Part shown: positions 18,799-48,946 of the stretch, in pieces
How the letters are laid out: every line of letters starts with the position of its first letter
How positions within the stretch are numbered: position 1 is the stretch's first letter
Assembly (NCBI RefSeq): GCF_025642135.1
Contig: NZ_CP106793.1
Location: forward strand, 4,530,001-4,594,000
DNA: 64,000 bases
Reading direction: 5' to 3'
DNA from: Streptomyces cynarae
Lineage (GTDB): Bacteria; Actinomycetota; Actinomycetes; Streptomycetales; Streptomycetaceae
Notes under the pieces: generated by a model
Database searches by the model: none
Told to the model about the DNA's origin: nothing
What the model saw: only the letters and a program-made list of their open reading frames with translations
Program-made: the position numbers and the translations under genes

Positions 18799-21700
18799 TC
18801 ACTGTCGACCGCACGGGGGGTCGTACGAGAGGCGGGGCAGGTACTCCTGCCATTTCTCCGGCGTCAGAACGCCCCGCGTGGTCGAGCAGATGCGGCGGAC
18901 GGCCTGGTCGACGTCCAGGTTCCACAGCCGGACGGTGTCCGCGCCGCTCGACACCCCGAGCAGGTGACTGGCGGGGCTGAAGGAGAGGAAGTTGCCGGTC
19001 TTGGCGTTGGGGCTCATCGACTGGCCGATGGGGGAGGCCTTGTCCGGGTCGGTGACGTTCCACAGCCGCACGGTGTTGTCGTTGCCACCGCTGGCCAGCC
19101 GGTGCCCGTCCGGGCTGAACGTCAGTGACACGACCGCCTCGGTGTGGCCGGTGAGGGCGTTGCCCAGCCGGGTGGTGTGGAGCGGGTCGGTGACGTTCCA
19201 CAGCCGGACCGTGTCGTCGTCGCTGCCGCTGGCCAGTGTGTGGCCGTCCGGGCTGTAGGCGAGCGTGTTGATCGGGCCCAGATGCCCGGTGAGCGGCGAG
19301 CCGAGCGATCGCGGGCGCCGGGGGTCGGTGACGTTCCACAGCCGCACGGTCCCGTCGGCGCTGCCGCTTGCGAGGGTGTGGCCGTCGGGGCTGTAGGCGA
19401 GGGCGTTGACGTAGCCGGTGTGGCCGGTGAGGGGCTTGCCGAGGCGGCGTGGGCGGGACGGGTCGGTGATGTCCAGCAGCTGGATGGTGCGGTCGTCGTA
19501 GTCGACGGCCAGTGTGTGCCCGTCGGGGCTGAGCGCCAGCGCGTCGGCGCCCGCGTACCGGGTCCGCAGCGGGACGGGCGGGCCGTAGGAGACCGGACGG
19601 GCGGGATCGGCGACGTTCCACAGCTGGACCGTGTTGCCGGTCCCGGTCAGGACGGCGAGGGTGCGGCCGTCGGGTGAGAACACCATTGACCGCAGGTCGC
19701 GCTCCCCGGTCGTGAAGGGCTTGCCCAGTGCCACGGGCCGCTCGGGGTCCGTCACGTTCCACAGCCGGATCCTGCTGTCGCCCGCGGCGGTCGCGAGGAC
19801 CTTCCCGTCCGGGCTGAACGCGCCGATCCGGCCGATCATGTCAGACCGCCGTATCGACCACAGCCGTACCTTGCTGTCGCCGCTGCCGGTGGCGAGGGTG
19901 TGCCCGTCGGGGCTGAAGCCGAGGGCGTACATCTCGCCGCTGCTGCCCGCGAGCGGTTCGCCGACCTGCGACGGGTAGGCCGGGTTGCTGACGTTCCACA
20001 GGGTCGCCGTGCTGTCCGCGCTGGCCGCGGCGATCAGGGACCCGTCCGGACTGAAGGCCACGGACCACACCGGGCCGGTGTGGCCGGTCAGGGGCTCGCC
20101 GAGGGAGCGGGGGTTCCGCAGGTCGGTGACGTTCCACAGGCGGACGGTGTCGTCCGCGCTGCCGCTGGCGAGGGTCCTGCCGTCCGGGCTGAAGGCCACG
20201 GAGTGCACGGTATGGGTGTGGCCGGTCAGGGGCGCGCCGAGGGAGTGCGGGTTCCGCGGGTCGGTGACGTCCCAGAGCCGGACCGTGGTGTCGTCGCCAC
20301 CGGACGCCAGTGTCTTCCCGTCGGGGCTGAACGCGATGGACCTTACGGCGTCGGTGTGGCCGGTCAGCCTGGTGAGCGAGACCGGATGCCGGGGGTCGGT
20401 GACCTTCCACAGCCGTACGGTGTGATCCTCGTCGGCGGTGGCCAGCGTGTGCCCGTCCGGGCTGAAGGCGGCCAGGAAGATCGTGCCGTCGTGGCCGTTC
20501 AGGGGCTCGCCCAGGGAGCGCGGGTGTCGGGGGTCGGTGACGTCCCACAGCCGTATCGTGCCGTCGTCCCCGGCGCTGGCCAGGGTGCGGCCGTCCGGGC
20601 TGAACACCGCGCTGCTCACCCAGCTCGTGTGACCCCTGAGGGGCTTGCCCAGGGGGCGTGGGCGCGCCGGGTCCGAGACGTCCCACAGCCGGACGGTCCG
20701 GTCGTAGCTGGCGGTGGCCAGGGTCTGCCGGTCCGGGCTGAACGAGGTCAGGTAGACGGCGCCGGTGTGGCCGAGCAGCGGCGTGGCCAGCGGCGCGTTC
20801 ACGATGGAGATCAAGCGGCTGTTGGTGCCCTCGTCGTCCGGTCGCAGGCGGTGGGCCACGACGTCGATCTGGGCGGACAGCGACGGATCCGTGGACTGCA
20901 CCCGGTCCGCTTCGGCGACCACCTGCTCGAACACCGCGTCGTCCCGCTGCTGCCACGCGACCACCGACGAGCCGACCGCCAGCAGCGCCAGGACGACCAG
21001 CGCCGCCACGGCTCCCCGCCGGAGCCGGACGGTGCGCTTGCGCAGTCGGACCGAAGCGGCCAGGAACTCCACCGCGCTGCGGGTGAGGAAGGTGTCACCC
21101 GAGGACTTCGCCCAGGCATGAGCCTGCTCCAGCCGAGAACCCCGGTACAGCAGCGCGCTGTCGCGGCGGGAGTCCTCCCAGGCCCTGCCGTCCTCCTCCA
21201 GCCGCTGCCGCAGCAGGTTCCCGTTCCTGTCCTCGTCGATCCAGTCGCGCAGGCGCGGCCAGGCGTGGAGCAGCGCCTCATGGGTGATCTCCACGGTCTC
21301 CGCGTCCAGCGTCACCAGCCGGGCGCGAACCAACGCTTCGAGCGACTCCTCCGTCTTGCCGGGGTCCGTCGACTCATCAGCCAGTTGCCGCCGGGTCCCC
21401 CGCCTGCGGGTGGCCTGGGTGTCCTCGCCCAGCCGGACCAGCCTGAGCAGGAGCAGGCGCGCGGCCGTGCGGGCCGCCGGATCGAGACCGGACCAGGCCC
21501 GCTCGGCCGTCGCCGCCACCGCTCCCTGGATCCCGCCGCCGCGCGGTAGCCGGCCAGCGTCAGCCGGCCCGCCTTGCGTCGCTGCCAGGTGGCGAGCAGA
21601 GCGTGCGAGAGCAGGGGCAGCACGCCCGCGTCGTGCGCCCCGCGCGGGCCGTCGACGCTGACCTCCCGGACGATCAGCTCCGCCAGTCCCGGTTCGAGTT

Positions 21701-22802
21701 CGAGCCCCACGGCCCTGGCCGGACGCGACACCGCTTCGCGCAGCTCCGCGGTGGTCAGCGGCCCCAGCACCATGTGCCGGTGCTGGAGCGCGTCGGCCAG
21801 TTCGGGATGTCCGAGGCACTGCTCGTAGAAGTCGGCGCGTATGCCGAGGACCACAAGTACGGGGGCGATGTCACCGGCGGCGGCGGGCGAGCACGCGGCG
21901 TGCAGGAGCCGGACGAACGTGCGCCGGTCGGCCTCGTCCGAGCAGAGGGTGAACGCCTCCTCGAACTGGTCCACGATGACGACCGGGCGAGTGGCGCGGG
22001 ACGTCTCGCGCCGCGCCCAGGCCGCGACGGCCTCCCGCACCGCGTGCTCGAAGCGCCCGGTGCCGGGCTCGTCGGCCTCCGCTTCCTTTTCGGCGGACAG
22101 GACGGGGGCGAGTTCGGGGATCCGACGGGTCAGCTCCGCGAGGGGGGCGCCGCCCGGTACGAGTTGCAGCACGTCCCTGCCGCCGCGCAGGGCGGGCACC
22201 AGGCCGGCGTTCAGCAGGGAGGACTTCCCCGCTCCCGAGGCGCCCACGAGCATGACCAGGCCGCCGGTCCGCTCGGCCGCCTCGAGCTGGCCGACGAGGG
22301 CGGCCGTCCACCGCTCCCGGCCGAAGAACCACCGGGCGTCCTCCCGGCGGTAGGGAGCCAGCCCCCGGTACGGGCACACGCCACCGGGGACGGCCGGGGC
22401 GTCGGCGGAGGAACGCTCCTCGTCGTCCGTCTCCTCCTCGGTCGCCGGGGGGCGGTCGCCGACCGGGTCGGCCACCGCGCGCTCCCACAGGCGCTGCCAC
22501 TGGGCGAGGTCGTACAGGCCGGTGGACACCGGTGCGGGCCGTGAGCGCCGTGCTTCGGGGATCAGGACGTGCAGCACCGCCGCGAGGGCGGCGAACTGGG
22601 CGGGCACGTTCCTGGCCCGCCGCCAGTCGCTGATCCGCTGTGCGGACACCCGCACGGGGCGCCCTCGTTCGTCGACCCGCTGAAGCCGGACGACCGCCTC
22701 CGCCACGCGTTTGAGCGGAGGGTTGCCGGCCTCCTTGTACAGCAGGGCGAGACGTTCCGCGAAGGCCGTGCGTGCTCCCGAGTCGGAACTCAAGGTCCCC
22801 AC
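18799..22802 (-). CDS. HTH-STAND (nSTAND1) NTPase with 14 WD40 repeats, frameshifted as read
   Basis: Read as one gene of about 1,334 aa if one base is restored near 21535-21545. The N-terminal part starts at a GTG (22802). It has an HTH-like segment (about residues 45-80), a STAND domain with Walker A GASGAGKS (187-194) and Walker B VVIVDQFEEA (about 274-283), and a helical arm. After the break come a winged-helix-like part (EITHEALLHAWPRLRDWI) and one membrane segment (AVAALVVLALLAVGSSVVAW). Fourteen WD40 blades follow, each with a FSPDG turn and VRLW ending, enough for two seven-bladed propellers. The observed length of 4,004 nt is one short of a multiple of three. STAND-WD40 proteins sense signals and some act in phage defence; the role here is unknown. 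Confidence 0.82.
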
Positions 22803-23287
22803 CCCTTACTTCCACCGCACCTGACGTCCGGACCGGAAAACTCACCTTATACGGCTGACCTGCGGTTAAGTCGCCCGGGCCGTACCGGAATCTCCTCGCT
22901 GACGGCATCAACTGGCAGGATCCACGGCGCGGGAGCTAACCGACCGCGCGGTGCCCGGACAGGCCACCGGATCGGCGCTCGGCGAGACGACGTGCACTGC
23001 CGCACGTCCGCGACGCAGGCACGTCCGCGACGCGCCCCGCCTTTCCTCGACCGTGCCGGTACGGCTCGGCTCGACGCCACCACCCGGTTCGGCACCGGTC
23101 TCCACGAGGGGAGGGACCGGTGCCGGACGGTGGGGCGCGGAGAAACGCCCCCCCGATACCACCCGAGTGTCCCGGGTCGCCGTCCCCGCCACCGTACGCC
23201 ACAGCACGACACCGCACACCCCTGGATAGCTGACGGTCCGTCAGTTATGGTCTGCCCTGCCGTACCGTTTCCGAAGGGGTGGGTGCA
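22803..23287. other. 485-bp intergenic region between divergent genes
   Basis: Upstream of both the STAND-WD40 gene (minus) and the 23288 gene (plus). Apart from the operator-like palindrome at 23230-23244, no conserved protein, RNA or repeat is visible. Open frames here show no protein-like segments. Confidence 0.5.
23230..23244. promoter_or_regulatory. Operator-like inverted repeat CTGACGGTCCGTCAG
   Basis: Seven-base arms about a central T, 43 bp before the 23288 start codon. The inner 13 bases are identical to the site at 60676-60688 upstream of the acyl-CoA dehydrogenase. Size and symmetry suit a TetR-family dimer. The binding protein is not identified in the window. Confidence 0.55.
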
Positions 23288-23767
23288 GTGCAGACATTTC
23301 CGCCAAGTCCCCGGCCGCCGGGCACCCCACGGTGGGTGGCGATGTACCACCAGCCGACCACGGCCTCCTGGCGGGTGGCGGCGGAGTCGCCCCACCGCTC
23401 CGCCGTGCTGTACGCGGTCGGTGAGATGACCCAGACGGTGCGGGCGCGCGGAGACGACGTGACGGTCGCGCTGTGGGGCCCGAAGGACGGCGCCTGGCAT
23501 CTGTTCGACGCGCCGGGGGGCACGACCGCCACGGCACCGCTTCCGCGCCCCGCCCGGAGCAGCGCGGAGCCGGGCAAGCTCGCCGAACGCATGGCCGACC
23601 GCCGCCACCAGGTCCTGATGGCCGGCCTGAGCAAGGCAGGGCTGTACGACCTCACGCAGGAGGACACGGCGGTCCTCCGGGAGTTGGTGGAGCGGCTCGA
23701 CGAGCCCACGGTGCGTCGCGTCGCCCACTGGCTCGCCGCTGCCGGAGGCCAAGGGGCGTCCGTCTGA
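23288..23767 (+). CDS. Hypothetical protein, 159 aa
   Basis: GTG start about 8 nt after GAAGGGG; a GTG three codons earlier is possible. It is a soluble protein with a central beta-like segment (VTVALWGPKDGAWHLFDAPG) and a helical C-terminus (ELVERLDEPTVRRVAHWLAA). The C-terminal half resembles small regulatory-type helices, but I do not recognise the family. It is transcribed away from the STAND-WD40 gene and preceded by the CTGACGG inverted repeat. Confidence 0.65.
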   Translation: MQTFPPSPRPPGTPRWVAMYHQPTTASWRVAAESPHRSAVLYAVGEMTQTVRARGDDVTVALWGPKDGAWHLFDAPGGTTATAPLPRPARSSAEPGKLAERMADRRHQVLMAGLSKAGLYDLTQEDTAVLRELVERLDEPTVRRVAHWLAAAGGQGASV

Positions 23768-23898
23768 CGACTCCCGCCGGGCGCACGACGCCCTGCGGAA
23801 GCCCCGACGCCCCAGGCCCCAGGGCCCTCCGTCCGGCACCGCCTCGCGCGCGGAGCGCTACGGTTGCCTCTGTGCGGACGGAGAGAGAGGCGGACCGG

Positions 23899-24822
23899 AT
23901 GAGCAGTACCGTCGCGGAGGCCCTGGTCACCCTGGGCCGCCGGTACGTACGGGACGCTCCGGGCTCGTTCGGCAAGGCGCTTGTGGCCGCCCGGTTCCTG
24001 AACCCGCATCTGCGGGACCACCCCCGCCGACGGGTCGTCGAGACCCGCTTCGGTGCGCGGTTCGCGGTCGACACCCAGGACCTGATCCAGCGGTACCTGT
24101 ATCTCTTCGGGGTGTGGGAGCCGCACATGACCGGCTGGATCCAGCGCCGGCTGAAGCCGGGAGACGGCTTCATCGACGTCGGGGCCAACATCGGCGTCTT
24201 CAGCGTGCTGGCCTCACGGCTCGTCGGAGACCAGGGACGGGTCGTGGCGATCGAGGCCTCCCCGGCGTTCCACCGCCGTCTGGTGCAGCAGGCCCGGCTG
24301 AACGGGTGCCGGAACATCCGGGCCGTGAACGCCGCGGTCTCCGACGCGCCCACCACACTGACCTTCGTGCTCGCCAGCTCGCGCAACATGGGCGCGAACA
24401 GCATCGTCCCGTACGACGGGCCGGCCGAGTCCACCTTCGAGATCGACGCCCTGCCGCTGCCGGAGCTGCTCGATCCGGAGGAGATCGCGAACGCCCGTGT
24501 GATCAAGATAGATGTGGAGGGGGCGGAGGGCGGAGTCGTCCGCGGTCTGGCGCCCGTGCTGGACAAGCTCCGGCCGGACGCGGAGATCACCGTGGAGGTG
24601 ACCCCCGAGCGGATGGCCCGACTCGGCGACCGTGCCGAGGACTTGATGCGCATTATGTCCGATGCCGGCTTCCACGCCTACCGGTTGGCCAACGACTACG
24701 CGGCCGAGAGCTACCCGCGCGCGCTGAGCGGGACGCCCGGGGTGGCGGTCCGCCTGCGGGGTCCGGTGGTCGAAGAGACCGATGTGGTCTTCTCCCGGGT
24801 GGACGCCGAGACCCTGCCCTGA
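23899..24822 (+). CDS. FkbM-family SAM-dependent methyltransferase
   Basis: 307-aa class I methyltransferase. The ATG follows GAGAGAGAGG; longer in-frame extensions overlap the previous gene and lack a ribosome site. SAM motif I is IDVGANIGVFSVLAS (about 92-106), the acidic ribose-binding motif is VVAIEASP, and the FkbM signature IKIDVEGAEGGVVRGL lies at about residues 204-219. FkbM enzymes O-methylate sugars or polyketides; the substrate here is unknown. It converges with the glycosyltransferase across a minisatellite, so a shared glycan pathway is possible. Confidence 0.88.
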   Translation: MSSTVAEALVTLGRRYVRDAPGSFGKALVAARFLNPHLRDHPRRRVVETRFGARFAVDTQDLIQRYLYLFGVWEPHMTGWIQRRLKPGDGFIDVGANIGVFSVLASRLVGDQGRVVAIEASPAFHRRLVQQARLNGCRNIRAVNAAVSDAPTTLTFVLASSRNMGANSIVPYDGPAESTFEIDALPLPELLDPEEIANARVIKIDVEGAEGGVVRGLAPVLDKLRPDAEITVEVTPERMARLGDRAEDLMRIMSDAGFHAYRLANDYAAESYPRALSGTPGVAVRLRGPVVEETDVVFSRVDAETLP

Positions 24823-24880
24823 CGCGCGCGTCGCGGCGCGGCGCGTCGCGACGCGACGCGTCCCGGCAGCGGGAGTGCGG
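24823..24880. repeat. CG-dinucleotide-rich simple sequence
   Basis: Immediately after the methyltransferase stop is a stretch made almost only of GCGCGTCG/CGACGCG-like steps, with self-complementary character. It may fold as part of the end of the transcript. It precedes the minisatellite. Confidence 0.5.
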
Positions 24881-24952
24881 CCAAGTGGTGCTTCCGGGCA
24901 TCCGGCCCTTGGGGCCGGATGGTGGTGGCGGGCACGCGGGCGGCGGTGCTTC

Positions 24953-25355
24953 GGGCCACGCGGGGCCTGGGACCCGGCGGTGCTTCGGGGCACGCGGGGC
25001 CTGGGCCCCGGCGGTGCTTCGGGGCACACGGGCCTGGGACCCGGCGGTGCTTCGGGGCACGCGGGACCTGGGCCCCGGCGGTGCTTCCGGGCACGCGGGA
25101 CCTGGGCCCCGGCGGTGCTTCCGGGCACACGGGCCTGGGCCCCGGCGGTGCTTCGGGGCACACGGGCCTGGGACCCGGCGGTGCTTCGGGGCACACGGGA
25201 CCTGGGCCCCGGCGGTGCTTCGGGGCACACGGGACCTGGGACCCGGCGGTGCTTCGGGGCACGCGGGCCTGGGACCCGGCGGTGCTTCGGGGCACGCGGG
25301 ACCTGGGACCCGGCGGTGCTTCCGGGCACGCGGGACCTGGGTCAGACGGTGCTTC
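24953..25355. repeat. Minisatellite of twelve 33/34-bp units
   Basis: Twelve head-to-tail units of 34,34,33,34,34,33,33,34,34,33,34 and 33 bp add up exactly to 403 bp. Each follows the pattern GGGGCAC-RCGGG-(A)CCTGGG-NCC-CGGCGGTGCTTC. Variation is concentrated at a few positions (ACACGGG or GCGGGAC, GGGACCC or GGGCCCC, first base G or C). Two more degenerate units extend to about 25423. Mixed 33/34 spacing breaks every reading frame, so it is non-coding. It fills the space between the convergent methyltransferase and glycosyltransferase genes. Confidence 0.96.
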
Positions 25356-25409
25356 CGGATATACGGGGTCCGCGGTCAGGTCGTGCTTTCGGGCGCCAGG
25401 GGTCCGTCG

Positions 25410-26189
25410 TCAGGTCGTGCTTCCGGGGCTCGGGTACCGCCAGCCGGAGGACGCCAACGCCCTGGCCCTTGCCTCCACCACCGCCATACGCCGCTCCCGC
25501 TCGGCGGGATCGACATGCGATGCCTGGCCCGTGGCCTGCCCCTGCCACTTCCGGTACAGCAGCCCCACCTCCCGGGAGAACCAGCCCCGGCTCACGGCGT
25601 TCAGCGCGAGCAGCAGTCCCGTGTCCTCGGACGCCGGCAGCGCCATCCAGCCCCCGAGCGCCATCAGGAGGTCGCGCCGGACACAGAGCGTCGCCGGGTG
25701 GACCTGGGCGCAGAAGCCGTTCGCCTTCCAGAAGTCGAGGACCGCGCCGCGCTCGACCGGCCCGTCCGCCGGATCGCCGGGGAAGCCGGCCGTCGAGCCG
25801 TCCGGGAGGAGGTCCAGCGCGCGGGACGTGGTCCAGCCGAGGGTGGGGTCCGCTTCGAGGACGGCCAGGTCGCGGGCCAGGGTGCCCGGCGGGAGCTGGT
25901 CGTCCGCGTCCAGCACCTTCACGTACGCGCCGTCGGTGTGCGCCAGGGCCATCGTGCGGGCGACACCGGGTCCACCGGGCCGGCCCTGACGGAAGGTCAC
26001 GCGCTCGTCGTCCGGGACGTACGGGCGGACGTCGTCCGTCTCCCCGTCCTCCTGGATCACCCAGTGCCACTCCCAGCCCTCCGGAAGCCACTGTTCGCCC
26101 AGGGACTTGTACGCCTCCGGCAGGAACCGGGCCGACGGGGCGTGGACAGCGGTGACGACGATGAGGCGCACGCTCACGGCTGCGCTCAC
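25410..26189 (-). CDS. Family 2 (GT-A) glycosyltransferase
   Basis: 259-aa glycosyltransferase with an N-terminal strand RLIVVTAVHAP, the DxD-type metal motif DADDQ at 94-98 and a later SEDTGLLLAL segment (ED acceptor motif). The GTG start overlaps the stop of the GntR gene (GTGA), so the two are translated together; an in-frame GTG one codon upstream is equally open. There are no membrane segments. Donor and acceptor are unknown. The 3' end runs into the degenerate edge of the minisatellite. Confidence 0.85.
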   Translation of the reverse strand: MSAAVSVRLIVVTAVHAPSARFLPEAYKSLGEQWLPEGWEWHWVIQEDGETDDVRPYVPDDERVTFRQGRPGGPGVARTMALAHTDGAYVKVLDADDQLPPGTLARDLAVLEADPTLGWTTSRALDLLPDGSTAGFPGDPADGPVERGAVLDFWKANGFCAQVHPATLCVRRDLLMALGGWMALPASEDTGLLLALNAVSRGWFSREVGLLYRKWQGQATGQASHVDPAERERRMAVVEARARALASSGWRYPSPGSTT

Positions 26190-26857
26190 CACCTTTCCAG
26201 GGGAGTGACGAAGACCAGCTCCGTGCGGTCGCCGGGCAGTGTGACGTCGGTGATGTCCACGACGCGGCCGCCGGTGTCGTACGAGGTCTTGCGGAGCAGG
26301 ATCACCGGCGTCCCCGGCGGAAGTTCCAGCTCCTGCACCTCTTCGGGCGTCGGCGGACGGGCGGTGAAGCGCTCCTCGATGCGGTCGACCTCGATGCCGA
26401 CCGTGCGGAGCTGGTTCTGTGTGCCGCCGGGCCAGGGCTCGTTGGAGTCGTCCAGCAGGTCCGGATTCCCCGCGACCACGTCACGGACGAGGTAGGAGGT
26501 CACCAGGCTGAACGGGGCGGTCTCGGCCGCGCAGCGCGTCCGGTACGTGCGCTCCAGCAGGACCGTGCCGTCCGGGACGCCGAACGCGTTCGCCAGGTCC
26601 TTGGGCGCCTCCGTCTCGCGGTACCTCGCCTCGAACACGAGGTGGTGCGACGGGAGCCCGGTGTCGTGCTCCGTCGCCCCGGTCCGCGCCCGCGTGGCCA
26701 GCGACTGCCGGGCGCGGTCCTTCTCCCACTGGTGCCGCCCGTTGTGGCGCACCACGGGGGTCCGCTGACGCCGTACGCGGGTTCCGTGGCCGTGCCGTCC
26801 GTCCATCAGCCGGTCGTCCGCGATCAGCTCGTACGCCTTGGGCACTGGTGCTCTCAC
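26186..26857 (-). CDS. GntR/UTRA regulator lacking most of its HTH domain
   Basis: 223 aa. The C-terminal UTRA effector domain is intact, from about residue 65 to the end, including LVFEARYRETEAPKDLANAF, LLERTYRTRCA and the end LPGDRTELVFVTPLERW. The N-terminus begins like a GntR winged helix (VPKAYELIAD) but jumps directly to the wing (DRLMDGRHGHGTRVR), so about 40-45 residues of helix-turn-helix are missing in frame. The GTG at 26857 has a weak GACGGATCG ribosome site. It is coupled to the glycosyltransferase. As read it should bind ligand and dimerise but not bind DNA normally. Confidence 0.8.
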   Translation of the reverse strand: MRAPVPKAYELIADDRLMDGRHGHGTRVRRQRTPVVRHNGRHQWEKDRARQSLATRARTGATEHDTGLPSHHLVFEARYRETEAPKDLANAFGVPDGTVLLERTYRTRCAAETAPFSLVTSYLVRDVVAGNPDLLDDSNEPWPGGTQNQLRTVGIEVDRIEERFTARPPTPEEVQELELPPGTPVILLRKTSYDTGGRVVDITDVTLPGDRTELVFVTPLERW

Positions 26858-26968
26858 CGATCCGTCGGGGGCCCTCCAGGCCAGCCTAGGACTCCTCAAG
26901 AGCTCCTGACGACTCGGGAAGGGGCATGGGCTGCGCAGGCCGAGGCGCCGGTGCCGGAAGACGAGCAC

Positions 26969-27017
26969 ACGGCAGACTGCCCGGCACCTGGGAGCAGGTG
27001 CCGGGTCGTCTGCCGTC
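26969..27017. terminator. Long bidirectional hairpin
   Basis: Two stacked stems: ACGGCAGAC with GTCTGCCGT, and CCCGGCACCTG with CAGGTGCCGGG, with a GGAG loop and a small internal mismatch. It lies downstream of the minus-strand exported protein gene at 27134 and upstream of the GntR gene. Confidence 0.75.
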
Positions 27018-27041
27018 GGCGTGTACGCAAGTCGCCTCGGT

Positions 27042-27108
27042 GGGTCCCTGGGTCTCTTCGGGTCCCTGAGTCTTTGGATCCCTGAGTGTTTCGGTCCCTG
27101 AGCGTTTC
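27042..27108. repeat. Four degenerate 16-18 bp tandem units
   Basis: Units at 27042, 27060, 27076 and 27093 share GG(G/A)TCCCTG-(A/G)G-(T/C)G/CTTTC. They lie between the hairpin and the 27134 stop codon. The array is short, non-coding and probably unstable. Confidence 0.7.
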
Positions 27109-27133
27109 TGTCTGAACGTCGTCCGCGGATCCG

Positions 27134-27505
27134 TCAGCTGCGCAGCAGCACGGTCGGCTCCTCGAAGGGTCGTGGTACGGCGTGGGAGCGAAGGGCGTGG
27201 TGGGTGAGGGGCGTGCCGGCGGTGGCCGTGGAGGGACGGTGGCGGCAGGAGGGGGAGGAGCCGTGGGCCTCGGCCCTGATGCGCTGCTTCATCGTGGGGG
27301 GCAGGGAGTGGGCGAGGGCCCGGTATCCGTGCGCCGGCCACGGCAGCGTCACCTGCGGGCCGGAGGTGCGCGCCGACTGCGGCTGTGGTACCGATGCGGC
27401 AGCCGCCGTGGTGGCGTTCGTGGTGGCGAATCCGAGCGCGGCGAACAGCGCCAGGAAGGCGGTGACGACGGCGGTCCACAGCTTCATGACCTTGTTCCGG
27501 GCCAT
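27134..27505 (-). CDS. Small exported hypothetical protein
   Basis: 123 aa. The ATG follows GTGAGGGG. The N-terminus has MARNKVMKLW, then a hydrophobic core (TAVVTAFLALFAALGFATT) and an Ala-rich possible cleavage site near residue 37. The mature part is basic, with PPTMKQRIRAEAHGSSPSCR in its centre. Similar short exported proteins occur in Streptomyces as uncharacterised families; no function can be assigned. Confidence 0.7.
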   Translation of the reverse strand: MARNKVMKLWTAVVTAFLALFAALGFATTNATTAAAASVPQPQSARTSGPQVTLPWPAHGYRALAHSLPPTMKQRIRAEAHGSSPSCRHRPSTATAGTPLTHHALRSHAVPRPFEEPTVLLRS

Positions 27506-27854
27506 GACCCCTCACTTTCGGGTTGGGCGATTTGCGTACTTTCCTCATGATGTGTATGAGGGCTCCGAAGTGGTGGACCGACGCCCGTGCCGCGTCGATC
27601 TTCGGATGAACACCACCCGGATGGGTGCACGGGGTCGCACAAGGCCGAAAAGGGCCGGAAATCAGTGGTGGAAGGCGGTGGACGTCACACACCGTGAGGT
27701 CCGCTCACCCGCGGATCGTCAGCGGTGAGGTCCGGTCGTACTGTGCTGTGCCGGGCCGGAGTTGAGCGTCGGCTCAGGTCACCGATCGATATCGATCGGT
27801 GTGTATAGTCGGGCGCCAGAGGTCCCCTACGTCAAGGAAAGACGAGGTCGCGCG
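27506..27854. other. 349-bp spacer between divergent genes
   Basis: Contains the 22-bp palindrome and -10 hexamer before the DLW-39 gene (listed separately), and presumably the minus-strand promoter of the exported protein. No other gene-like signal is seen. Confidence 0.5.
27780..27809 (+). promoter_or_regulatory. Perfect 22-bp palindrome next to a -10 element
   Basis: 27780-27801 is a perfect palindrome with half-site CACCGATCGAT. A TATAGT -10-like hexamer follows at 27804-27809. The palindrome covers the expected -35 position, so a dimeric repressor bound here would block the promoter of the DLW-39 microprotein 45 bp downstream. Confidence 0.65.
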
Positions 27855-27983
27855 GTGAAGAAGCTTCTCCTGGTCGCACTGGCCGCCATCGGCGGGCTCC
27901 TCGTGTACCGCCAGATCCAGGCGGATCGCGCCGAGCAGGATCTGTGGACGGAGGCGACTGACTCCGTGCCCACGGGTTCGTGA
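27855..27983 (+). CDS. DLW-39 family microprotein
   Basis: 42 aa from a GTG start, with GAGG 8-11 nt upstream. It begins MKKLLLVALAAIGGLLVYRQ, a short hydrophobic segment that could sit in the membrane, and contains the EQDLW motif that names the family. These tiny proteins are conserved across actinobacteria near gyrA and the Ile/Ala tRNA genes; their function is unknown. Here it lies 11 kb from tRNA-Ile and 4 kb before tRNA-Ala. Confidence 0.85.
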   Translation: MKKLLLVALAAIGGLLVYRQIQADRAEQDLWTEATDSVPTGS

Positions 27984-28010
27984 GTTCAGACAGACAGCAG
28001 TTCAGAGCAG

Positions 28011-32645: not shown

Positions 32646-33334
32646 TCAGCGGCGGTCGTCGCCGTCCGTGGAGTCCTCCTCGGCCTGCTTCGCCTCCACC
32701 TCCGGGTCCAGCACGCTGGGACCGCTGCCGTCCACCGACGACAGCCGCTCGCTCTGCGGGACCTCGGTCGCGGCAGGCGGCTCGACCAGCCAGTCGGGGT
32801 TCGCCTGCTTGTCCCACCACTTCCAGGCGGCGAAGGCGCCGCCCGCCGCGAGGCCCAGCAGGGCCAGACCCTTCGCCACGCGGCGGCCCTGGCCCGCCGC
32901 CGCTGCCGGCGCACCAGCTTCTCGATCTGCCGCGGCGAGATCTGACCGCGCAGCGCGGCCAGCGCCGCCGCCCCGCGGGCCGCCGCCTCCTCCCGCACCG
33001 GGCCGGCCGCGGCTACGGCCTGCTCGATCTTCGGACGGGAGTAGTCGGCCGCCTGGCGGGCCGCCTTGCGGGTGCGGGTCGCGGCCTGGTCCACTGCCGG
33101 CGGCACATGGGCGCGGGCCTGTTCCAGACGCGGGGCGAGATGGGCGTCGTACTGGACGCGGGCCTGCTCGGCGGCCTGCGACACCTTGGGCGCGAGACGG
33201 ACACGCGCCTCATGTGCGTAGTGCGCTGCCTTGTCCTTGGCCGTGTCGGCGTAGGGCGCCACCACTTCCGCGGCATGCAGCACGCTGTCCTTCGCCGAAC
33301 CGGTCGCGGCGCGCACGCTGTCGATGCGGGTCAC
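32646..33334 (-). CDS. DUF5324-type protein, frameshifted as read
   Basis: Begins MTRIDSVRAATGSAKDSVLH. It has a long Ala/Arg-rich amphipathic helical region (about residues 1-140, possibly coiled coil) with RLAPKVSQAAEQARVQY and RLEQARAHVPPAVDQ. The frame breaks near 32895-32920, in the codons for RRQRRRA. It resumes one frame over at VAKGLALLGLAAGGAFAAWK, a membrane helix, and ends SVLDPEVEAKQAEEDSTDG-DDRR. Restoring one base gives about 229 aa; the present 689 nt is one short of a multiple of three. It is a Streptomyces family of unknown role. The break lies in a CGGCGGCGGG run. Confidence 0.78.
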
Positions 33335-39632: not shown

Positions 39633-40400
39633 GTGGGAGTGACCACCGACCAGGACGAGCAGACCGACGCGCCGTCACCCGGCCCCGGCGCCTCCTCGTC
39701 CGCACGGCGGCGCCGCGGGCGCGGCCGGATCGCGCTGGCCGTCAGCGTCTTCGGCGAGCTGCTGATCACGGCGGGCCTGGTGCTGGGCCTGTTCGTCGTC
39801 TACTCCCTGTGGTGGACGAACGTCATAGCGGACCGCAGGGCCGACCATCAGGGCGACAAGGTGCGCGACCACTGGGCGGCCGAGAAGGACAGCGGCCCGG
39901 GCGCCCTCGACACCAAGGACGGCATCGGCTTCCTGCACGTGCCGGCGATGAGGAACGGCGAGGTGCTCGTCGAGAAGGGCACGTCGACGAGCGTCCTCAA
40001 CGACGGCGTGGCCGGCTACTACACGGACCCGGTCAAGGCGACGCTGCCGATGACGGGCAAGACGGGCAACTTCGCGCTGGCCGCGCACCGGGACGGGCAC
40101 GGGGCGAAGTTCCACAACATCGACAAGCTGAAGAAGGGCGACCCGATCGTCTTCGAGACGAAGGACGACTGGTACGTCTACAAGGTCTTCGCGATCCTCC
40201 CGGAGACCTCGAAGTACAACGTGAAGGTGCTCTCGGCGGTCCCGAAGCAGGCGGGCGTGAAGAAGCCGGGCCACTACATCACGCTGACGACGTGCACCCC
40301 CGTCTACACCTCGGAGTACCGGTACATCGTGTGGGGCGAACTGGTGCGGGTGCAGAAGGTGGACAGCGAGCGGACGCCGCCGAAGGAGTTGGCTGAGTAG
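39633..40400 (+). CDS. Class E sortase (third of three)
   Basis: 255 aa if started at GTG 39633; GTG 39639 and 39594 are also in frame. A short Arg-rich cytosolic part, a membrane helix (SVFGELLITAGLVLGLFVVYS) and the sortase domain follow. The catalytic residues are His152 (AAHRDGHGAKF), Cys221 (TTCTPVY) and Arg230 (EYRYIVWGEL). It is most similar to the second sortase in helix and active-site surroundings, so a duplication is likely. A hairpin terminator follows. Confidence 0.9.
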   Translation: MGVTTDQDEQTDAPSPGPGASSSARRRRGRGRIALAVSVFGELLITAGLVLGLFVVYSLWWTNVIADRRADHQGDKVRDHWAAEKDSGPGALDTKDGIGFLHVPAMRNGEVLVEKGTSTSVLNDGVAGYYTDPVKATLPMTGKTGNFALAAHRDGHGAKFHNIDKLKKGDPIVFETKDDWYVYKVFAILPETSKYNVKVLSAVPKQAGVKKPGHYITLTTCTPVYTSEYRYIVWGELVRVQKVDSERTPPKELAE

Positions 40401-40410
40401 GATGCCGAGG

Positions 40411-40445
40411 GCCCGAAGCCGCAACTTCCTCTTGCGGCTTCGGGC
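40411..40445. terminator. Bidirectional terminator between sortase and nuclease genes
   Basis: A perfect 14-bp stem (GCCCGAAGCCGCAA with TTGCGGCTTCGGGC) around a 7-nt loop, 10 bp after the sortase stop. Being symmetric, it should serve both converging genes. Confidence 0.88.
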
Positions 40446-40464
40446 TCCTGTGTTCGCTGCCGTC

Positions 40465-41486
40465 TCATGCAGAGCGTTCAGGCGCACGCCTGCGGTCCAC
40501 GCTTCCAGCTCGTGGCGGTCCACGAGGACGACGCCGCTCAAACGGGCAATCGCCTGGGCTTCGTGGGTGAAGTTGCAGGTGGCGACGAACAGGGCGATGT
40601 CCACAGGCTCGACGGTCCGCGCGGCGCCGGCGAACTTCTGCATGTCGGCGCTCGACACGTACTGCCGATGGTTGTACCGCTTGCACTGGACGGCCACCGT
40701 TCGTCCGGCGGCCGTGCGTGCGGTGACGTCGATGCCTCGGTCGCTGTTGGCCCTCCGCACGACCACATCTGTACAGCCGTCGCGCCGGAGCAGGTCGGCG
40801 ACTTGGCGTTCGAACGCCTGCCAGGTCATCTTCCTGATGGACGCGCTGATCCCGTTCCTCGGCTCCTCGCCCTCCAGTGTGCTGATCCGGTGGTGATGCC
40901 AGCAGAGCCTGCGCTCGACGTTCTCGATGTCCTCGCGGAGGGCGATGAGCTCTCGGCGGTGCTCACTGGAGCTTTCGATCAGCGCGTTGAACATGGGAAC
41001 GACGGTCTTGCCGAGGATGTGGGCGATGCGCTGGTCGATGTGGTCGTCGAGGGACGGTGGGTCTGTGGGAGCCGGCTTTTCCACAGGCTGTGTACGGGCC
41101 AGGTACTCCACGTCGAGGAGGTACCTGCGCACCTGACGTGCGACTTCGCTGTCGCGGAGCAGCATGGCGACGTTGAGGACGGTCCGGCGGGAGAAGAGTG
41201 CCATGGAACGCGTGCGTGACTGGATCCCACTGAGTTGCTTGAAGTAACTCAGTTCTGTACCTGTCAGAACGCGGTAGCCGTTCGCCTCAAGTTCTGTGCG
41301 GTGATCGAGTACGAGGGCGCGGACAGCTTCGACAGTGACCCCGAAGTACGCCGCCACCATCGCCGTCGTCACATGCATCCCGTCCGGTAGCAGCGACAGC
41401 GCCTCCACCCTGTCGAGCACGTCGGTGCGTTCCAGCACGCTGCTCCGCAGAGCCTTCGATTCGAGAAGCGCTGATTCGTCGATCAC
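40465..41486 (-). CDS. Antirepressor-like N-domain fused to an Mrr-type (PD-(D/E)xK) nuclease, 3' end disturbed
   Basis: The GTG start follows GGAAGG. Residues 40-130 resemble an ORF6N/BRO-type phage antirepressor module (TAMVAAYFGVTVEAVRALVL, RTVLNVAMLLRDSEVARQVR). A coiled-coil linker (about 165-205) leads to a restriction-endonuclease domain with Glu226 (WQAFE), Asp253 (GIDV) and Gln267-Cys268-Lys269 (QCK), the Mrr active site. In the starting frame no stop comes until 39675, deep into the antisense of the third sortase and past the terminator. A stop at 40465 is in another frame, so a lost base near the end is likely. DNA cleavage, possibly of modified or foreign DNA, is inferred. Confidence 0.75.
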
Positions 41487-41632
41487 GTTCCGTCCTTCCA
41501 CCACTCGTGTCGTGTTCGCATGGCGGACAGGGAGCCGATGCCCCATCCTCAACTCGAGCAACGAGCCATGACATATGACGATGTGGTCGGACTTCGTACG
41601 AAGAACTGGAATGCAGGCTTGGTTCCATGCGA

Positions 41633-41662
41633 GAGCCCCGGCACCTGCAGGTGCCGGGGCTC
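41633..41662 (-). terminator. pknB terminator
   Basis: A perfect 30-bp palindrome with half-site GAGCCCCGGCACCTG, 36 bp after the pknB stop, ends the fhaA-to-pknB operon. The symmetric hairpin would also stop any antisense transcript. Confidence 0.88.
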
Positions 41663-41697
41663 AGCCGTCGGGTGTGGCCGGTACGGGCCGGTCGGCC

Positions 41698-43686
<1,989 letters not shown>

Positions 43687-43856
43687 AGCTTCCTACCAGC
43701 CCTCTCCGTCGGTCCCGACCACACCCGCGTGTGGTCCGGCGGTGTGCTGTCCGGGCATACGGTACCCGGCTCGCTGTGCGTGACCTGGCCACATCCGCCA
43801 CCCGATACAGGACCGGTATCGCAACGTGCACCGATGTGAAGGGGACGTGACGGGGG

Positions 43857-45344
43857 TCACTTCTTGCTGTTGATGACCGCTTCCATGACGTTCTTCGCGA
43901 TGGGGGCGGCGAGGCCGCCACCGGAGATGTCCTCGCGATTGGCCTTGTCGTCCTCGACCACCACGGCCACGGCGACAGGCGAGCTGCCGTCCTTGAGCTT
44001 GGCGAACGAGATGAACCAGGCGTACGGCTTCTCGCTGTTGTTCAGACCGTGCTGGGCGGTACCGGTCTTGCCGCCCACGGTGACGCCGGGGATCTGCGCG
44101 TTGGTGCCGGTTCCCTTCTCGACGACGGTCTGCATCATCGACTGCAGGATCTGTGCGTTCTTCTCCGACAGCGGCCGGCTCAGCTCCTGCGGCTGGGTCT
44201 GCGTGATCACGTCCAGGCTGGGCGCCTGCAGCTTGTCCACCATGTACGGCTTCATCAGCTTGCCGTCGTTGGCGACGGCGGAGGCGACCATGGCCATCTG
44301 CAGCGGGGTCGCGGCAGTCTCGAACTGGCCGATGGAACTGAGCGCGGTCTGCGGCCGGTCCATCTTCTCGGGGAAGTTGGAGGCGGCCGAGCGCACAGGC
44401 GTGAACTGCTCGGAGTCGAACCCGAACTTCTTCGCCTCCTCGAGCATCTTGTCCTTGCCGAGGTCGGCGCCGATCTTGCCGAAGACGGTGTTGCAGGAGT
44501 ACTGCAGCGCGGTCCGCAGGGTCGCGTTCTCGCAGGGGATGTTCCCCTCGTTCTTCAGCTGCGTCGTGGTGTCCGGGAGGGTGTAGGGCAGCGGTGACCT
44601 GGTCGGGTCGTCCGCGCTGGTGTACAGCCCGTTCTCCAGCGCCGCCGCCGCGGTGACCACCTTGAAGGTGGAGCCCGGCGGGTAGGTCTCGCGCAGCGCC
44701 CGGTTCTGCATCGGATCGGCCGGGTTGTTCTTCTTCTGCAGCGACGACCAGGCCTTGCTGTCGGTCGAGAGGGAGTTGCCCGCGAACGTCGACGGGTCGT
44801 ACGACGGGTAGGAGGCCAGCGCGAGGATCGCGCCGGTCTGCGGGTCGAGCGCCACGGCCGCGCCCTTGCCGCCGACCTGCTTCAGCCCGTTGTACGCGGC
44901 TTTCTGCGCGGCCGCGTTGAGCGTGGTGACGACGTTGCCGCCCTGCTGCTGCTTGCCGGTCAGCATGTTCAGCGTGTTGCGGAAGAACAGCCGGTCGTCG
45001 GTGCCGGTGAGGATGCCGTCCTCGATGGACTCGAGCTGCGTGGCGCCGAAGGCCTGGGAGGCGAAGCCGGTGACCGGCGCCCACATCGCGCCGTCCTTGT
45101 AGGTGCGCTTGTACTTGAAGTCGTTGAGGCTGTTGGTGGGCGTCTCCTTGGACCCCGTGATCGGGCTGCCGTCGACGATGATGTCGCCGCGCGGAGTGGA
45201 ATACCGGGCGATCAGCACACGGCGGTTGTCCGGGTCGGTGCGCAGGTTGTCGGCCTGCAGGTACTGGAGCCAGTTGTCGCGGACGAGCAGCGCGAGGACG
45301 AGGAGCCCGCAGAAGATCGCGATCCGGCGCAGGGGCTTGTTCAC
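43857..45344 (-). CDS. pbpA: Penicillin-binding protein PbpA (transpeptidase)
   Basis: 495-aa class B PBP that crosslinks peptidoglycan with FtsW/RodA-type glycosyltransferases. The GTG start (MNKPLRRIAIFCGLLVLALL) overlaps the ftsW stop (GTGA). After one membrane helix the transpeptidase domain carries SxxK as STFK, SxN as SCN (YSCNTVFGKI) and the KTG triad as GGKTGTAQH. All catalytic motifs are intact. Confidence 0.96.
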   Translation of the reverse strand: MNKPLRRIAIFCGLLVLALLVRDNWLQYLQADNLRTDPDNRRVLIARYSTPRGDIIVDGSPITGSKETPTNSLNDFKYKRTYKDGAMWAPVTGFASQAFGATQLESIEDGILTGTDDRLFFRNTLNMLTGKQQQGGNVVTTLNAAAQKAAYNGLKQVGGKGAAVALDPQTGAILALASYPSYDPSTFAGNSLSTDSKAWSSLQKKNNPADPMQNRALRETYPPGSTFKVVTAAAALENGLYTSADDPTRSPLPYTLPDTTTQLKNEGNIPCENATLRTALQYSCNTVFGKIGADLGKDKMLEEAKKFGFDSEQFTPVRSAASNFPEKMDRPQTALSSIGQFETAATPLQMAMVASAVANDGKLMKPYMVDKLQAPSLDVITQTQPQELSRPLSEKNAQILQSMMQTVVEKGTGTNAQIPGVTVGGKTGTAQHGLNNSEKPYAWFISFAKLKDGSSPVAVAVVVEDDKANREDISGGGLAAPIAKNVMEAVINSKK

Positions 45345-46777
45345 GGTCGGACCACCTGGGTCATCTCGGCGTCGGGGTTGGGGGCGGGGGTCGGGGCCGG
45401 GCGGCGCGCGGTGTCGCTGATGCGCAGCAGGATGCCGATCAGGGCCCAGTTGGCGATGACGGAGGAACCGCCGTACGCCAGGAAGGGCATCGTCATACCG
45501 GTCAGCGGGATGAGCCCCATCACACCGCCGGCGACCACGAAGACCTGCAGCGCGAACGCGCCGGACAGGCCGACGGCCAGCAGCTTGCCGAACGGGTCGC
45601 GGGCGGCGAGGGCGGTGCGCACGCCGCGCTCCACGATCAGGCCGTAGATCAGGAGAAGCGCCATGATGCCGGCCAGGCCCAGCTCCTCGCCGAAGGTGGC
45701 GAGGATGAAGTCGGAGTTGGCGGCGAACCGGATCAGGTCGGAGTGGCCCTGGCCGAGGCCGGTGCCGAGGGTGCCGCCGGAGCCGAACGCCCACAGGGCC
45801 TGCTGGAGCTGCTCGGAGTGGCCGCCGACGCCCTGTCGGCTGAGCAGGTATTCGTGCATCGGGTTGAGCCACGCCTGCACACGTGACTTCACGTGCGGCT
45901 CGATGCTGGCCACGCCGACGGCGCCGGCCGCGGACATCAGCAGACCGAAGACGATCCAGCTGGTCCGCTCGGTGGCGACGTACAGCATGATGACGAACAT
46001 TCCGAAGAACAGCAGCGACGTACCGAGGTCCGTCTCGAAGACCAGGATGAGGATCGAGATCGCCCAGACGACGAGGATCGGTCCGAGGTCGCGGCCGCGC
46101 GGCAGGTACAGGCCCATGAAGCGGCGGCTGGCCAGGGCGAGCGCGTCGCGCTTCACCATCAGGTAGCCGGCGAAGAACACCGCGAGGACGATCTTCGCGA
46201 ACTCGCCGGGCTGGATGGAGAAGCTGCCGACGTGGATCCAGATCTTCGCGCCGTAGATGTTGGCGCCGAGGCCCGGGATGAGCGGCAGGATCAGCAGGAC
46301 CAGCGCCGCGACCATGGAGATGTAGGTGTAGCGCTGCAGGACCCGGTGGTCCTTGAGGAAGACCAGCACGGCGACGAACAGCGCGATGCCCAGCGCGGTG
46401 TAGAGCAGCTGCTTCGGCGCCGCGCTGCCGGCCTGGCCGATCGCCTGCAACAGCTTGGACTGGTCGAGCCGCCAGATCACCACCAGACCCAGGCCGTTGA
46501 GCAGGGTCGCCAGCGGAAGCAGCAACGGGTCGGCATACGGGGCGAACTTCCGTACGACGAGATGGCCGACGCCGGCCAGCAGGCCGAGGCCGACGCCGTA
46601 GCTCAGCAGGCCGGGCGGCACCTTGCTGTTGATGGCGAGGCCCACGTTGGCGTAGGCGAACACCGGGATGACGACGGCGAACACCAGCAGTGCCAGCTCG
46701 GTGTTGCGGCGGCTCGGTGTGCCGATCGCGCCGATCGTGGACGTGTGGTGCGTCGACGTGTTCGTACTGCTGCTCAT
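45341..46777 (-). CDS. ftsW: FtsW/RodA/SpoVE-family peptidoglycan polymerase
   Basis: 478-aa SEDS-family glycosyltransferase with about ten membrane helices. Motifs include HVGSFSIQPGEFAKIVLAVF (the catalytic-loop region) and FILATFGEELGLAGIMALLL, plus TGMTMPFLAYGGSSVIANW near the end. It works with PbpA, which is encoded next in an overlapping frame. FtsW and RodA cannot be separated by sequence alone; the position in the operon is normal for the Streptomyces gene usually annotated FtsW. Confidence 0.93.
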   Translation of the reverse strand: MSSSTNTSTHHTSTIGAIGTPSRRNTELALLVFAVVIPVFAYANVGLAINSKVPPGLLSYGVGLGLLAGVGHLVVRKFAPYADPLLLPLATLLNGLGLVVIWRLDQSKLLQAIGQAGSAAPKQLLYTALGIALFVAVLVFLKDHRVLQRYTYISMVAALVLLILPLIPGLGANIYGAKIWIHVGSFSIQPGEFAKIVLAVFFAGYLMVKRDALALASRRFMGLYLPRGRDLGPILVVWAISILILVFETDLGTSLLFFGMFVIMLYVATERTSWIVFGLLMSAAGAVGVASIEPHVKSRVQAWLNPMHEYLLSRQGVGGHSEQLQQALWAFGSGGTLGTGLGQGHSDLIRFAANSDFILATFGEELGLAGIMALLLIYGLIVERGVRTALAARDPFGKLLAVGLSGAFALQVFVVAGGVMGLIPLTGMTMPFLAYGGSSVIANWALIGILLRISDTARRPAPTPAPNPDAEMTQVVRP

Positions 46778-46803
46778 GGTGTGACAGGGCCCCTCACGGC
46801 TGC

Positions 46804-48350
46804 TTACTGCTTACCGCACAGTGAGACGACCTTCTGCTCTTCCTCCGAGAGGCTGGGGCCGGGTGTGGGAGTGGGTGCGGTCTGGTTCTTGGACGCCGAC
46901 GCCGAGGGGTTCGGAGTCGGCGAGGCCTTGGACGTCGGGGAGTTGCTCGCGGTTCCCGTGGTGCTGCCGGGCTTGGGGGTGTTCTTGGACTCCGCGGTGC
47001 GGCGTTCGACGTCCTTCCTGCACGCGGACGCCTGCACGGCCAGCTCGGAGATCTTCGACTGGGCCTCCTGGAGACCGCCCTCGGCGATGGTCGCCTTGAC
47101 CTGCTTCTGCTGGTACGGCGGCAGGTACTTGAGTTCGATCTCCGGGTGGTCCTTCTCCACCTCGGACAGCGACACCCACGCCAGGTCCTGGCTGATGCCG
47201 CGGTACAGCGCGACGTGCTCGCCGTTGGCACCGACGTAGTACTGCGTCTGCGTCCACCGGTAGGCGCCGTAGCAGCCGCCGCCGATGACGGCGAGCGCGA
47301 GGACCGTGTAGAACGATCTCTTAAGCCACCTGCGGCCCTTCCTCGGCTTGACGAAGTCCTCGTCGGTGTAGTCGCCGAAGCTGCCCGCCGGGATGTACCC
47401 GGTGGTGTCGCCGCTGCCGGGCGGCCCGAACTCGCCCCCGCCGCCCTGCCGGGCCGCGTGGCGGCCCAGGCGGCGGCGCGGCCCGCGGGCGTCTGCATGA
47501 TGCCGTTGTCGTGCAGGTGGTTCTGGTTCTCGGCGACCGCGCCCACCACGACCGGGGTGTCGGACAGGTGCCCGGCGAGGGTGTCCCCGGTGTCCAGGTC
47601 GAGTACGTCGGCCACGATGACCGTGATGTTGTCGGGGCCGCCACCGCGCAGCGCCAGCTCGATCAGCGCCTGCACGGTCTCCTCGGGGCCGTGGTAGCTG
47701 GCGAGGGTCTCCTCCAGCGTCTGGTGGGAGACCACCCCCGACAGCCCGTCGGAACAGATCAGGTACCGGTCGCCGGCGCGCACCTCACGGATGGACAGGT
47801 CCGGGTCTACGTGGTCGCCGCTGCCCAGCGCACGCATCAGCAGGGACCGCTGCGGGTGGGTGGTGGCCTCCTCCTCGGTGATGCGGCCCTCGTCGACGAG
47901 CCGCTGCACCCAGGTGTGGTCCTGGGTGATCTGAGTGAGGACGCCGTCCCGCAGCAGGTACGCGCGGGAGTCGCCGACGTGGACGAGGCCGAGCCGCTGA
48001 CCGGTCCACAGCAGCGCGGTGAGCGTGGTCCCCATGCCCTCGAGCTGGGGGTCCTCCTCGACCATCGCCCGCAGCTGGTCGTTGGCGCGCTGCACCGCGG
48101 TGCCGAGCGAGGTGAGGATGTCGGAGCCGGGGATGTCGTCGTCGAGCGCGACGATGGTGGAGATCACCTCGGACGAGGCGACCTCGCCGGCGGCCTGGCC
48201 GCCCATCCCGTCGGCGATCGCGAGCAGGCGCGGACCGGCGTAACCGGAGTCCTCGTTGCCCTCGCGGATCATGCCTTTGTGCGATCCGGCGGCGAAGCGC
48301 AGTGAGAGACTCATGCGCACCTCGCCCGTCGGCTCCGGGTACATCCGCAC
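46804..48350 (-). CDS. pstP: PP2C-type Ser/Thr phosphatase PstP, frameshifted as read
   Basis: PstP removes phosphates put on by PknB and related kinases. The N-terminal PP2C domain is intact, with GMIREGNEDSGYAGPRLLAI, ADGMGGQAAGEVAS, HVGDSRAYLL and GGGPDNITVIVAD metal-binding motifs. After IMQTPAGR the frame breaks near 47455-47475 and resumes one frame over with QGGGGEFGPPGSGDTTGYIP, a membrane helix (RSFYTVLALAVIGGG) and an extracytoplasmic Thr/Ser/Pro-rich tail ending VVSLCGKQ. The total of 1,547 nt is one short of a multiple of three. Several starts are open (48359, 48350, 48344). Confidence 0.88.
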
Positions 48351-48434
48351 GGTGCCCACCCTCCGGTCGGGAGCGCGCCGGGGCCCTGGGTGGGGACCAC
48401 CGCTGCGTGCTCGCTCCGCTCGCTCATTGTCGTA

Positions 48435-48946
48435 CTACTTCCGCAGCTCGATGACGGTCTTGCCGATGCGGATCGGCGCGCCCAGCGGAATCGGTGTGGG
48501 GGACGTCAGCCGGGTCCGGTCGAGGTACGTGCCGTTGGTGGACCCGAGGTCCTCGACGATCCACTGGCCGTCGCGGTCGGGGTAGATCCTGGCGTGCCGG
48601 CTGGAGGCGTAGTCGTCGTCCAGCACGATGGTGCTGTCATGGGCACGTCCGAGCGTGATGGTCTGGCCCTGCAGCGCGACCGTGGTCCCGGTCAGCGAGC
48701 CCTCGGAGACGACCAGCTTGGTGGGCGCCCCGCGGCGCTGCCGCCCGCCGCCCGGCTGCTGTCGCTGCGGCGGGGCGCCGCCTGGCGGGCGGTCGGCTGC
48801 GGCCGTGCGGCCTCGCGACGCGCGCCGCGCTGGGTGACCCGCGTACCGAACAGGTCGCTCCTGATGACCTGCACGGCCACGATCACGAACAGCCACAGTA
48901 CGGCCAGGAAACCCAGCCGCATGACCGTGAGGGTCAGCTCTGACAT
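48435..48946 (-). CDS. fhaB: FHA-domain protein FhaB (FipA-type), frameshifted as read
   Basis: FhaB binds phosphothreonine on kinase targets and links PknB signalling to division. It starts MSELTLTVMRLGFLAVLWLF, with one membrane helix. A basic linker (ARREAARPQPTARQAAP) breaks frame in a CCCC run near 48760-48775 and resumes as PPQRQQPGGGRQRRGAPTKL. The FHA domain follows, with GRAHDSTIVLDDDYASSRHA and DLGSTNGTYLDRTR. The total of 512 nt is one short of a multiple of three, giving 170 aa when corrected. Confidence 0.88.

What the first reader, a model, noticed from the sequence alone, without database searches (positions are those of the whole stretch)
18799..48946. Four genes each look one base short in a G/C run
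The STAND-WD40 gene (near 21540), DUF5324 (near 32900), pstP (near 47465) and fhaB (near 48765) all break frame at GC-repeat runs (GCGGCGGCGGG, CGGCGGCGGG, GCCGCCGCC, CCCC). Each has a full-length gene size one short of a multiple of three, and each resumes one frame over with perfectly conserved protein. pstP and fhaB are in a conserved core operon. The shared direction and context suggest missing bases in the sequence rather than four real mutations; if real, the strain would have altered PknB signalling.
Basis: partly seen in the sequence, partly recalled or inferred. Interest (0 to 1): 0.7.

Follow-up and report, generated by a model that had tools for sequence, protein, structure and literature searches.

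The report
Four frame breaks from missing bases
Four genes of a soil Streptomyces look broken, but most likely the deposited sequence has simply lost single letters in very GC-rich spots, so the genes are probably intact in the living bacterium.

Summary
The STAND-WD40, DUF5324, pstP and fhaB genes each change frame in the same direction. Their lengths (4004, 689, 1556 and 512 b) are each one short of a multiple of three. The same-species genome G273 has all four in one frame. pstP is intact in 107 of 108 relative loci that hold both its ends, fhaB in 109 of 109.

The missing-base interpretation is supported. Its single-base gains (69%) and G273's own losses (66%) do not. One 23S rRNA copy of the same genome lacks a base in three short runs where every other readable copy has it. 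murJ and, with one relative's support, dnaX are broken alike.

Programmed frameshifting is excluded in practice, because relatives read straight through. A truly mutated strain is not excluded without reads, since Streptomyces tolerates loss of PknB. As biology this is not a real feature; as a warning about the record it is useful.

The parts
18799..22802 (-). STAND (nSTAND1 NTPase)-WD40 gene, read in two frames; break near 21538
   Evidence: ORFs 21312-22802 and 18799-21819; nSTAND1 split 1-255 / 253-378; in one frame, 1334 aa in G273 and 1336 aa in G183
32646..33334 (-). DUF5324 gene, read in two frames; break near 32885
   Evidence: PF17258 1-156/220 in the window, 1-220/220 in G273; own-only loss against G273, G183, G040 and G049
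46804..48359 (-). pstP, PP2C-type Ser/Thr phosphatase gene; break near 47471, after the catalytic domain
   Evidence: NF033484 at residues 26-250; break at residue 297 of 518 in G273 numbering; in one frame in 107 of 108 relative loci that hold both ends
48435..48946 (-). fhaB gene (FHA-domain protein FhaB/FipA); break near 48772, between the N-terminal segment and the FHA domain
   Evidence: NF049868 FhaB_Rv0019c profile 45-158 in the downstream frame; in one frame in 109 of 109 relative loci
46795..46803 (.). a further one-base shortfall just downstream of the pstP stop, near 46801
   Evidence: loss relative to G273, G183 and G049; G040 has the same length as this genome here, so it was scored unclear

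Best explanation
The four frame breaks are residual single-base deletion errors in the deposited assembly, which is in two contigs and so probably built from long reads. The errors fall in very GC-rich stretches. The genes are most likely intact in the strain. Shown here: the breaks, their direction, their absence in relatives, their GC context, a modest excess in this genome, and a matching pattern in an rRNA copy. Inferred: that the cause is base-calling or consensus error left where corrective reads were thin or absent. No reads and no record of the sequencing method were available.
For: Relatives: pstP in one frame in 107 of 108 relative loci that hold both ends, fhaB in 109 of 109. The same-species genome G273 and the 98% relative G183 are each 3 b longer over the 3021 b query covering pstP and fhaB. 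The 8 own gains have 0.688 and the 9 G273 losses 0.661. Internal control: the 23S rRNA copy at 2108232-2111350 lacks one base at three separate places where every other readable copy of the same genome has it, with no gain inside the gene relative to both other full copies. Excess: by one rule (internal, uncompensated, supported by at least 2 relatives, not shared with other genomes) this genome has 9 sites in 8 genes (8 losses, 1 gain), with 296 G273 genes tested; G273 has 1, G183 2, G040 2, G049 2, together 4 losses and 3 gains. Elsewhere (3.09-3.15 Mb) 7 more losses and no gain in 5 of 42 G273 genes tested, while the reverse test on 47 own genes shows only two mirror images. Important genes hit alike: murJ (4 relatives) and dnaX (G273 only). 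Sequence past the breaks is still conserved: 60/60 residues on each side in pstP against G273. Literature: most indel errors in a long-read assembly were false deletions (PMC12007338, passages); high-GC actinomycete genomes have more bases uncovered by Illumina reads, and some errors remain after short-read polishing (PMC11260486, passages).
Against: No raw reads. One-sidedness alone does not mark errors: own isolated one-base changes are 12 losses and 8 gains, and G273's 9 are all losses. 36 of 65 isolated indels could not be polarised. In the second region the losses, not polarised, show the hexamer at only 1 of 12 and mean G+C 0.754, and some lie near ORF starts and may be upstream of the true start. 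A third region (6.10-6.14 Mb, 25 genes tested) shows no break, so errors would have to be patchy. The genome scores 100% complete. Loss of pknB is tolerated in Streptomyces (PMC13432765), so essentiality does not rule out a real pstP or fhaB lesion.
Confidence: 0.93

Rival explanations
1. Real frameshift mutations in this strain, for instance a mutagenised or long-propagated laboratory lineage, leaving PstP without the part after its catalytic domain, FhaB without its FHA domain, and the STAND and DUF5324 proteins truncated.
For: Nothing in the assembly itself forbids it. pknB frameshift mutants of Streptomyces grow (PMC13432765, section read). Several broken genes belong to protein phosphosignalling: pstP, fhaB, a PknG-type kinase, an FHA protein and a SpoIIE-domain protein.
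Against: Own losses lie in extreme-GC patches that own gains and G273's losses avoid. murJ and dnaX and an rRNA copy are hit in the same way. Protein similarity is undiminished after the breaks, although a very recent event would look the same. Slippage in GGC repeats would be expected to lose three bases, not one (inference).
Confidence: 0.06
2. Programmed frameshifting or phase variation at GC-rich repeats, so that both short and long products are made.
For: Repeats at the break sites; all four shifts in one direction.
Against: Relatives encode the same proteins in one frame at these places. The one other broken pstP (L142) breaks at another place, residue 223. Programmed sites are expected to be conserved across a family; singletons point to mutation or error (PMC3711429, passages).
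Confidence: 0.01

Closest known systems
Gene-fragmenting indel errors in long-read bacterial assemblies (as catalogued by Kastor, PMC12007338, passages seen)
   Same: Single-base losses in short runs split genes whose relatives are intact; losses outnumber gains.
   Different: Here the losses around the window favour GGC/GCC-rich patches of a 70% G+C genome, not mainly long homopolymers; error density is lower than in the worst case of that paper.
Conserved actinobacterial fhaA-fhaB-pstP-rodA-pbpA-pknB cluster
   Same: Gene order in the window: an FHA protein (fhaA by position) 48957-49802, fhaB, pstP, an FtsW/RodA-type gene 45341-46777 (below the FtsW model's cut-off), pknB 41698-43686. The gene between the last two was recognised as a penicillin-binding protein from recall only, not by a call.
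   Different: Only the two frame breaks were seen as a departure. The usual order of the cluster is recalled, with a mention in PMC13432765.
Programmed ribosomal frameshifting (dnaX, prfB type)
   Same: A gene read in two frames.
   Different: No conservation of the break; relatives read through.

Membership tests
Residual assembly error | Relatives, including the same species, have the gene in one frame at that place | tested here: met
Residual assembly error | Excess of such breaks in this assembly over others | tested here: inconclusive
Residual assembly error | Particular sequence context not shared by ordinary indels | tested here: met
Residual assembly error | Bias to one kind of indel | tested here: inconclusive
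   8 of 9 own-only coding breaks are losses, but isolated indels are 12 losses and 8 gains, and G273's 9 are all losses
Residual assembly error | Same pattern where function forbids it (rRNA) | tested here: met
   three losses and no gain in one 23S copy against the other readable copies
Residual assembly error | Reads disagree with the consensus | not testable with these tools
   no reads available
Programmed frameshift gene | Break conserved at one site across relatives | tested here: not met
   the one other broken pstP breaks elsewhere
Pseudogene by real indel | Relaxed conservation after the break | tested here: not met
   pstP 60/60 residues identical to G273 on each side; DUF5324 60/60 and 59/60; a very recent event would look the same
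PstP (PP2C Ser/Thr phosphatase) | PP2C catalytic domain | tested here: met
   NF033484 231.4 bits, cut-off 230
FhaB/FipA | FhaB family model with C-terminal FHA domain | tested here: met
   NF049868 157.3 bits, cut-off 125, on the downstream frame alone

The most novel reading that the evidence does not exclude
The breaks are real, and this lineage has lost a connected piece of its protein phosphosignalling (pstP, fhaB, a PknG-type kinase, an FHA protein and a SpoIIE-domain protein) through a mutational process that removes single bases in GC-rich patches.
Probability: 0.03. Interest if true: 0.5.

Novelty: not a real feature. Interest (0 to 1): 0.1.

Why it matters
Automatic annotation of this genome is likely to list pstP, fhaB, murJ, dnaX and, by rough scaling, some 130-240 sites in all as broken genes (5 or 9 sites per 103,747 aligned residues, scaled to 9.36 Mb at about 87% coding; a rough inference). 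Anyone inferring lost signalling, cell-wall or replication functions from it would be misled. Comparing the GC context of one-base losses and gains against a same-species genome is a simple way to spot such records.

Tried and rejected
Programmed frameshifting and phase variation: rejected because relatives read through. First protein-level counts with tblastn pieces only and a first frameshift-tolerant alignment without filters gave many false sites from over-extended starts and diverged stretches; they were replaced. A purely compositional test of frame (third-position G+C) was too strict (3 own breaks and 1 G273 break among 84 isolated indels in the main region) and is not used for rates; it did pick pstP and fhaB, and DUF5324 against G183. 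Three of the six 23S copies read N in part, whether by the record or by the operators is unknown, and they were used only where readable; their apparent shortness is not taken as evidence. A sequencing-method label for the record was not available.
Full report
What was claimed.

The observation. The window lies at 4530001-4594000 of the 9.05 Mb contig of a two-contig genome. The 80 named relatives listed (the best of 555) are all Streptomyces. On the minus strand the four genes are open in one frame and continue in the next: STAND-WD40 (18799-22802), DUF5324 (32646-33334), pstP (46804-48359) and fhaB (48435-48946). The spans, counted by hand on the sequence, are 4004, 689, 1556 and 512 b, each one short of a multiple of three. 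All four change frame in the same direction. Domain matches split accordingly: nSTAND1 1-255 in one frame and 253-378 in the next, and DUF5324 1-156 of 220; the FhaB model is matched by the downstream frame from position 45. In pstP the catalytic domain (residues 26-250) lies before the break at residue 297.

Relatives. Of 109 relative loci around fhaA (29, 80; some genomes are in both sets), pstP is in one frame in 107, broken in one (L142, S. tuirus PHM034) and lacks a piece in one (L168); fhaB is in one frame in all 109. L142 breaks at another place, residue 223, so there is no shared site. A search of the genus (392 genomes, 289 scored, 103 not scored because the answer was too large) found one genome of the same species, G273, and a 98% relative, G183, each 3 b longer over the 3021 b query. 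G273 and G183 read DUF5324, pstP, fhaB and the STAND gene in one frame. The break is therefore not conserved, and programmed frameshifting is out.

How often it happens here. Some 500 kb of this chromosome was compared with 448 kb of G273, 236 kb of G183 and 400 kb each of G040 and G049; not all of it aligns. Proteins of each genome were aligned to the DNA of each other, allowing frame changes. I kept internal, uncompensated sites supported by at least two relatives and set aside sites shared between genomes (two of the 11 own clusters, 4503116 and 4525890) and mirror images of own breaks. This genome then has nine own sites in eight genes: eight losses (4424857, 4425219, 4519471, 4551538, 4562877, 4577470, 4578774, 4653206) and one gain (4447777). 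G273 has one, G183 two, G040 two and G049 two, together four losses and three gains. The numbers of genes tested differ: 296 G273 genes against own, 279 own genes against G273, 153 own genes against G183, 186 own genes against G040, and 153 own and 175 G040 genes against G049. Twenty-seven further own clusters rested on one relative only and are not counted; among them is dnaX (4357378, G273 only), where the two frames are plain. The murJ break (4519471, residue 204 of 784, MurJ domain 273-748) is supported by four relatives.

Other parts of the chromosome. At 3.09-3.15 Mb, 42 G273 genes gave seven own breaks, all losses, in five genes: a PknG-type kinase twice, an FHA-domain protein, a permease, a solute-binding protein twice and a subtilase. 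The reverse test (47 own genes) gave only two mirror images, in the kinase and the FHA gene. The permease and solute-binding sites lie close to the ORF starts and probably precede the true start, and the kinase's first site (residue 111) may too; the kinase's second site (residue 616) and the FHA protein site (residue 83) appear to be inside, and the subtilase site has a weak flank (27 of 40). At 6.10-6.14 Mb, 25 genes gave none. The breaks are patchy.

Context. Among 65 isolated one-base indels between this genome and G273, 12 are own losses, 8 own gains and 9 G273 losses; 25 have no third genome and 11 are unclear. One-sidedness alone is thus no mark of error. What differs is the setting. 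The 12 own losses lie in mean G+C 0.863 over 20 b (background 0.701; none of 20,000 random sets reached it) and 0.762 over 200 b (background 0.703), while own gains (0.688) and G273 losses (0.661) do not. In the relative the affected run is often only one to three bases long (8 of 12), which is not classical slippage. In the second region the hexamer is seen at only 1 of 12 losses, which could not be polarised, and mean G+C there is 0.754, so the context is not the same everywhere. The simplest reading is two populations: ordinary, lower-GC indels of both signs, and losses concentrated in extreme-GC patches.

Internal control. Six 23S copies were found in this genome. The copy at 2108232-2111350 (confirmed as a complete large-subunit rRNA) was compared with the two other full copies. 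Five gap columns lie within the gene: three are single bases missing from this copy alone, and two adjacent ones are present only in L245; 57 columns differ by substitution. At the three, every other readable copy has the base, and this copy is otherwise identical to L245 over 121 b. Outside the gene the copies differ by many gaps of both kinds. Three copies read N in part; at the three places five, three and two other copies could be read in full. This control needs no relative and shows the same kind of loss.

Mechanism and rivals. I take the breaks to be residual consensus errors of a long-read-type assembly in stretches that short reads or polishing did not reach (0.93). Published cases fit: false deletions dominate indels in a long-read assembly (PMC12007338, passages), and high-GC actinomycete genomes leave more bases without Illumina cover, with some errors remaining after polishing (PMC11260486, passages). 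Real mutations (0.06) cannot be excluded without reads. pknB frameshift mutants are viable in Streptomyces (PMC13432765, section 3.2 read), so that kinase at least is dispensable there, and it is curious that several broken genes belong to protein phosphosignalling. A likely reason is that such multidomain proteins carry Pro/Ala/Gly-rich linkers coded by GC-rich sequence: the breaks in pstP, murJ, dnaX, the SpoIIE-domain protein and the FHA protein lie outside their Pfam domains; those in DUF5324 and nSTAND1 lie inside.

Verdict. Observation confirmed, interpretation supported, no new biology. Interest is low, apart from the warning about the record.

Noticed in passing
G000:C1:2108232-2111350 (L247): One 23S rRNA copy lacks a single base at three places relative to all other readable copies; 23S copies of this genome also differ by clustered substitutions (57 mismatch columns among three full copies).
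   Followed up: yes
G000:C1 about 4357378 and 4519471 (outside the window): dnaX (G273 support only) and murJ (four relatives) show the same kind of frame break, in the linker before the C-terminal part and in the N-terminal extension respectively.
   Followed up: partly
G000:C1 3133446-3139399 (L226): A PknG-type kinase gene and a nearby FHA-domain gene carry further one-base losses against G273.
   Followed up: partly
G000:C1 4666064-4669437: Eight single-base losses and one gain against G273 within 3.4 kb, mostly without a third genome to polarise them; looks like a poorly corrected patch.
   Followed up: no
L142 (JAGTPG010000002.1, Streptomyces tuirus PHM034), near 12133: pstP is broken here too, by a loss at another place (residue 223); perhaps another assembly error.
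   Followed up: partly
G000:C1 4447777: The only own gain among nine own-only coding breaks: a SpoIIE-domain protein gene, supported by all four relatives.
   Followed up: no
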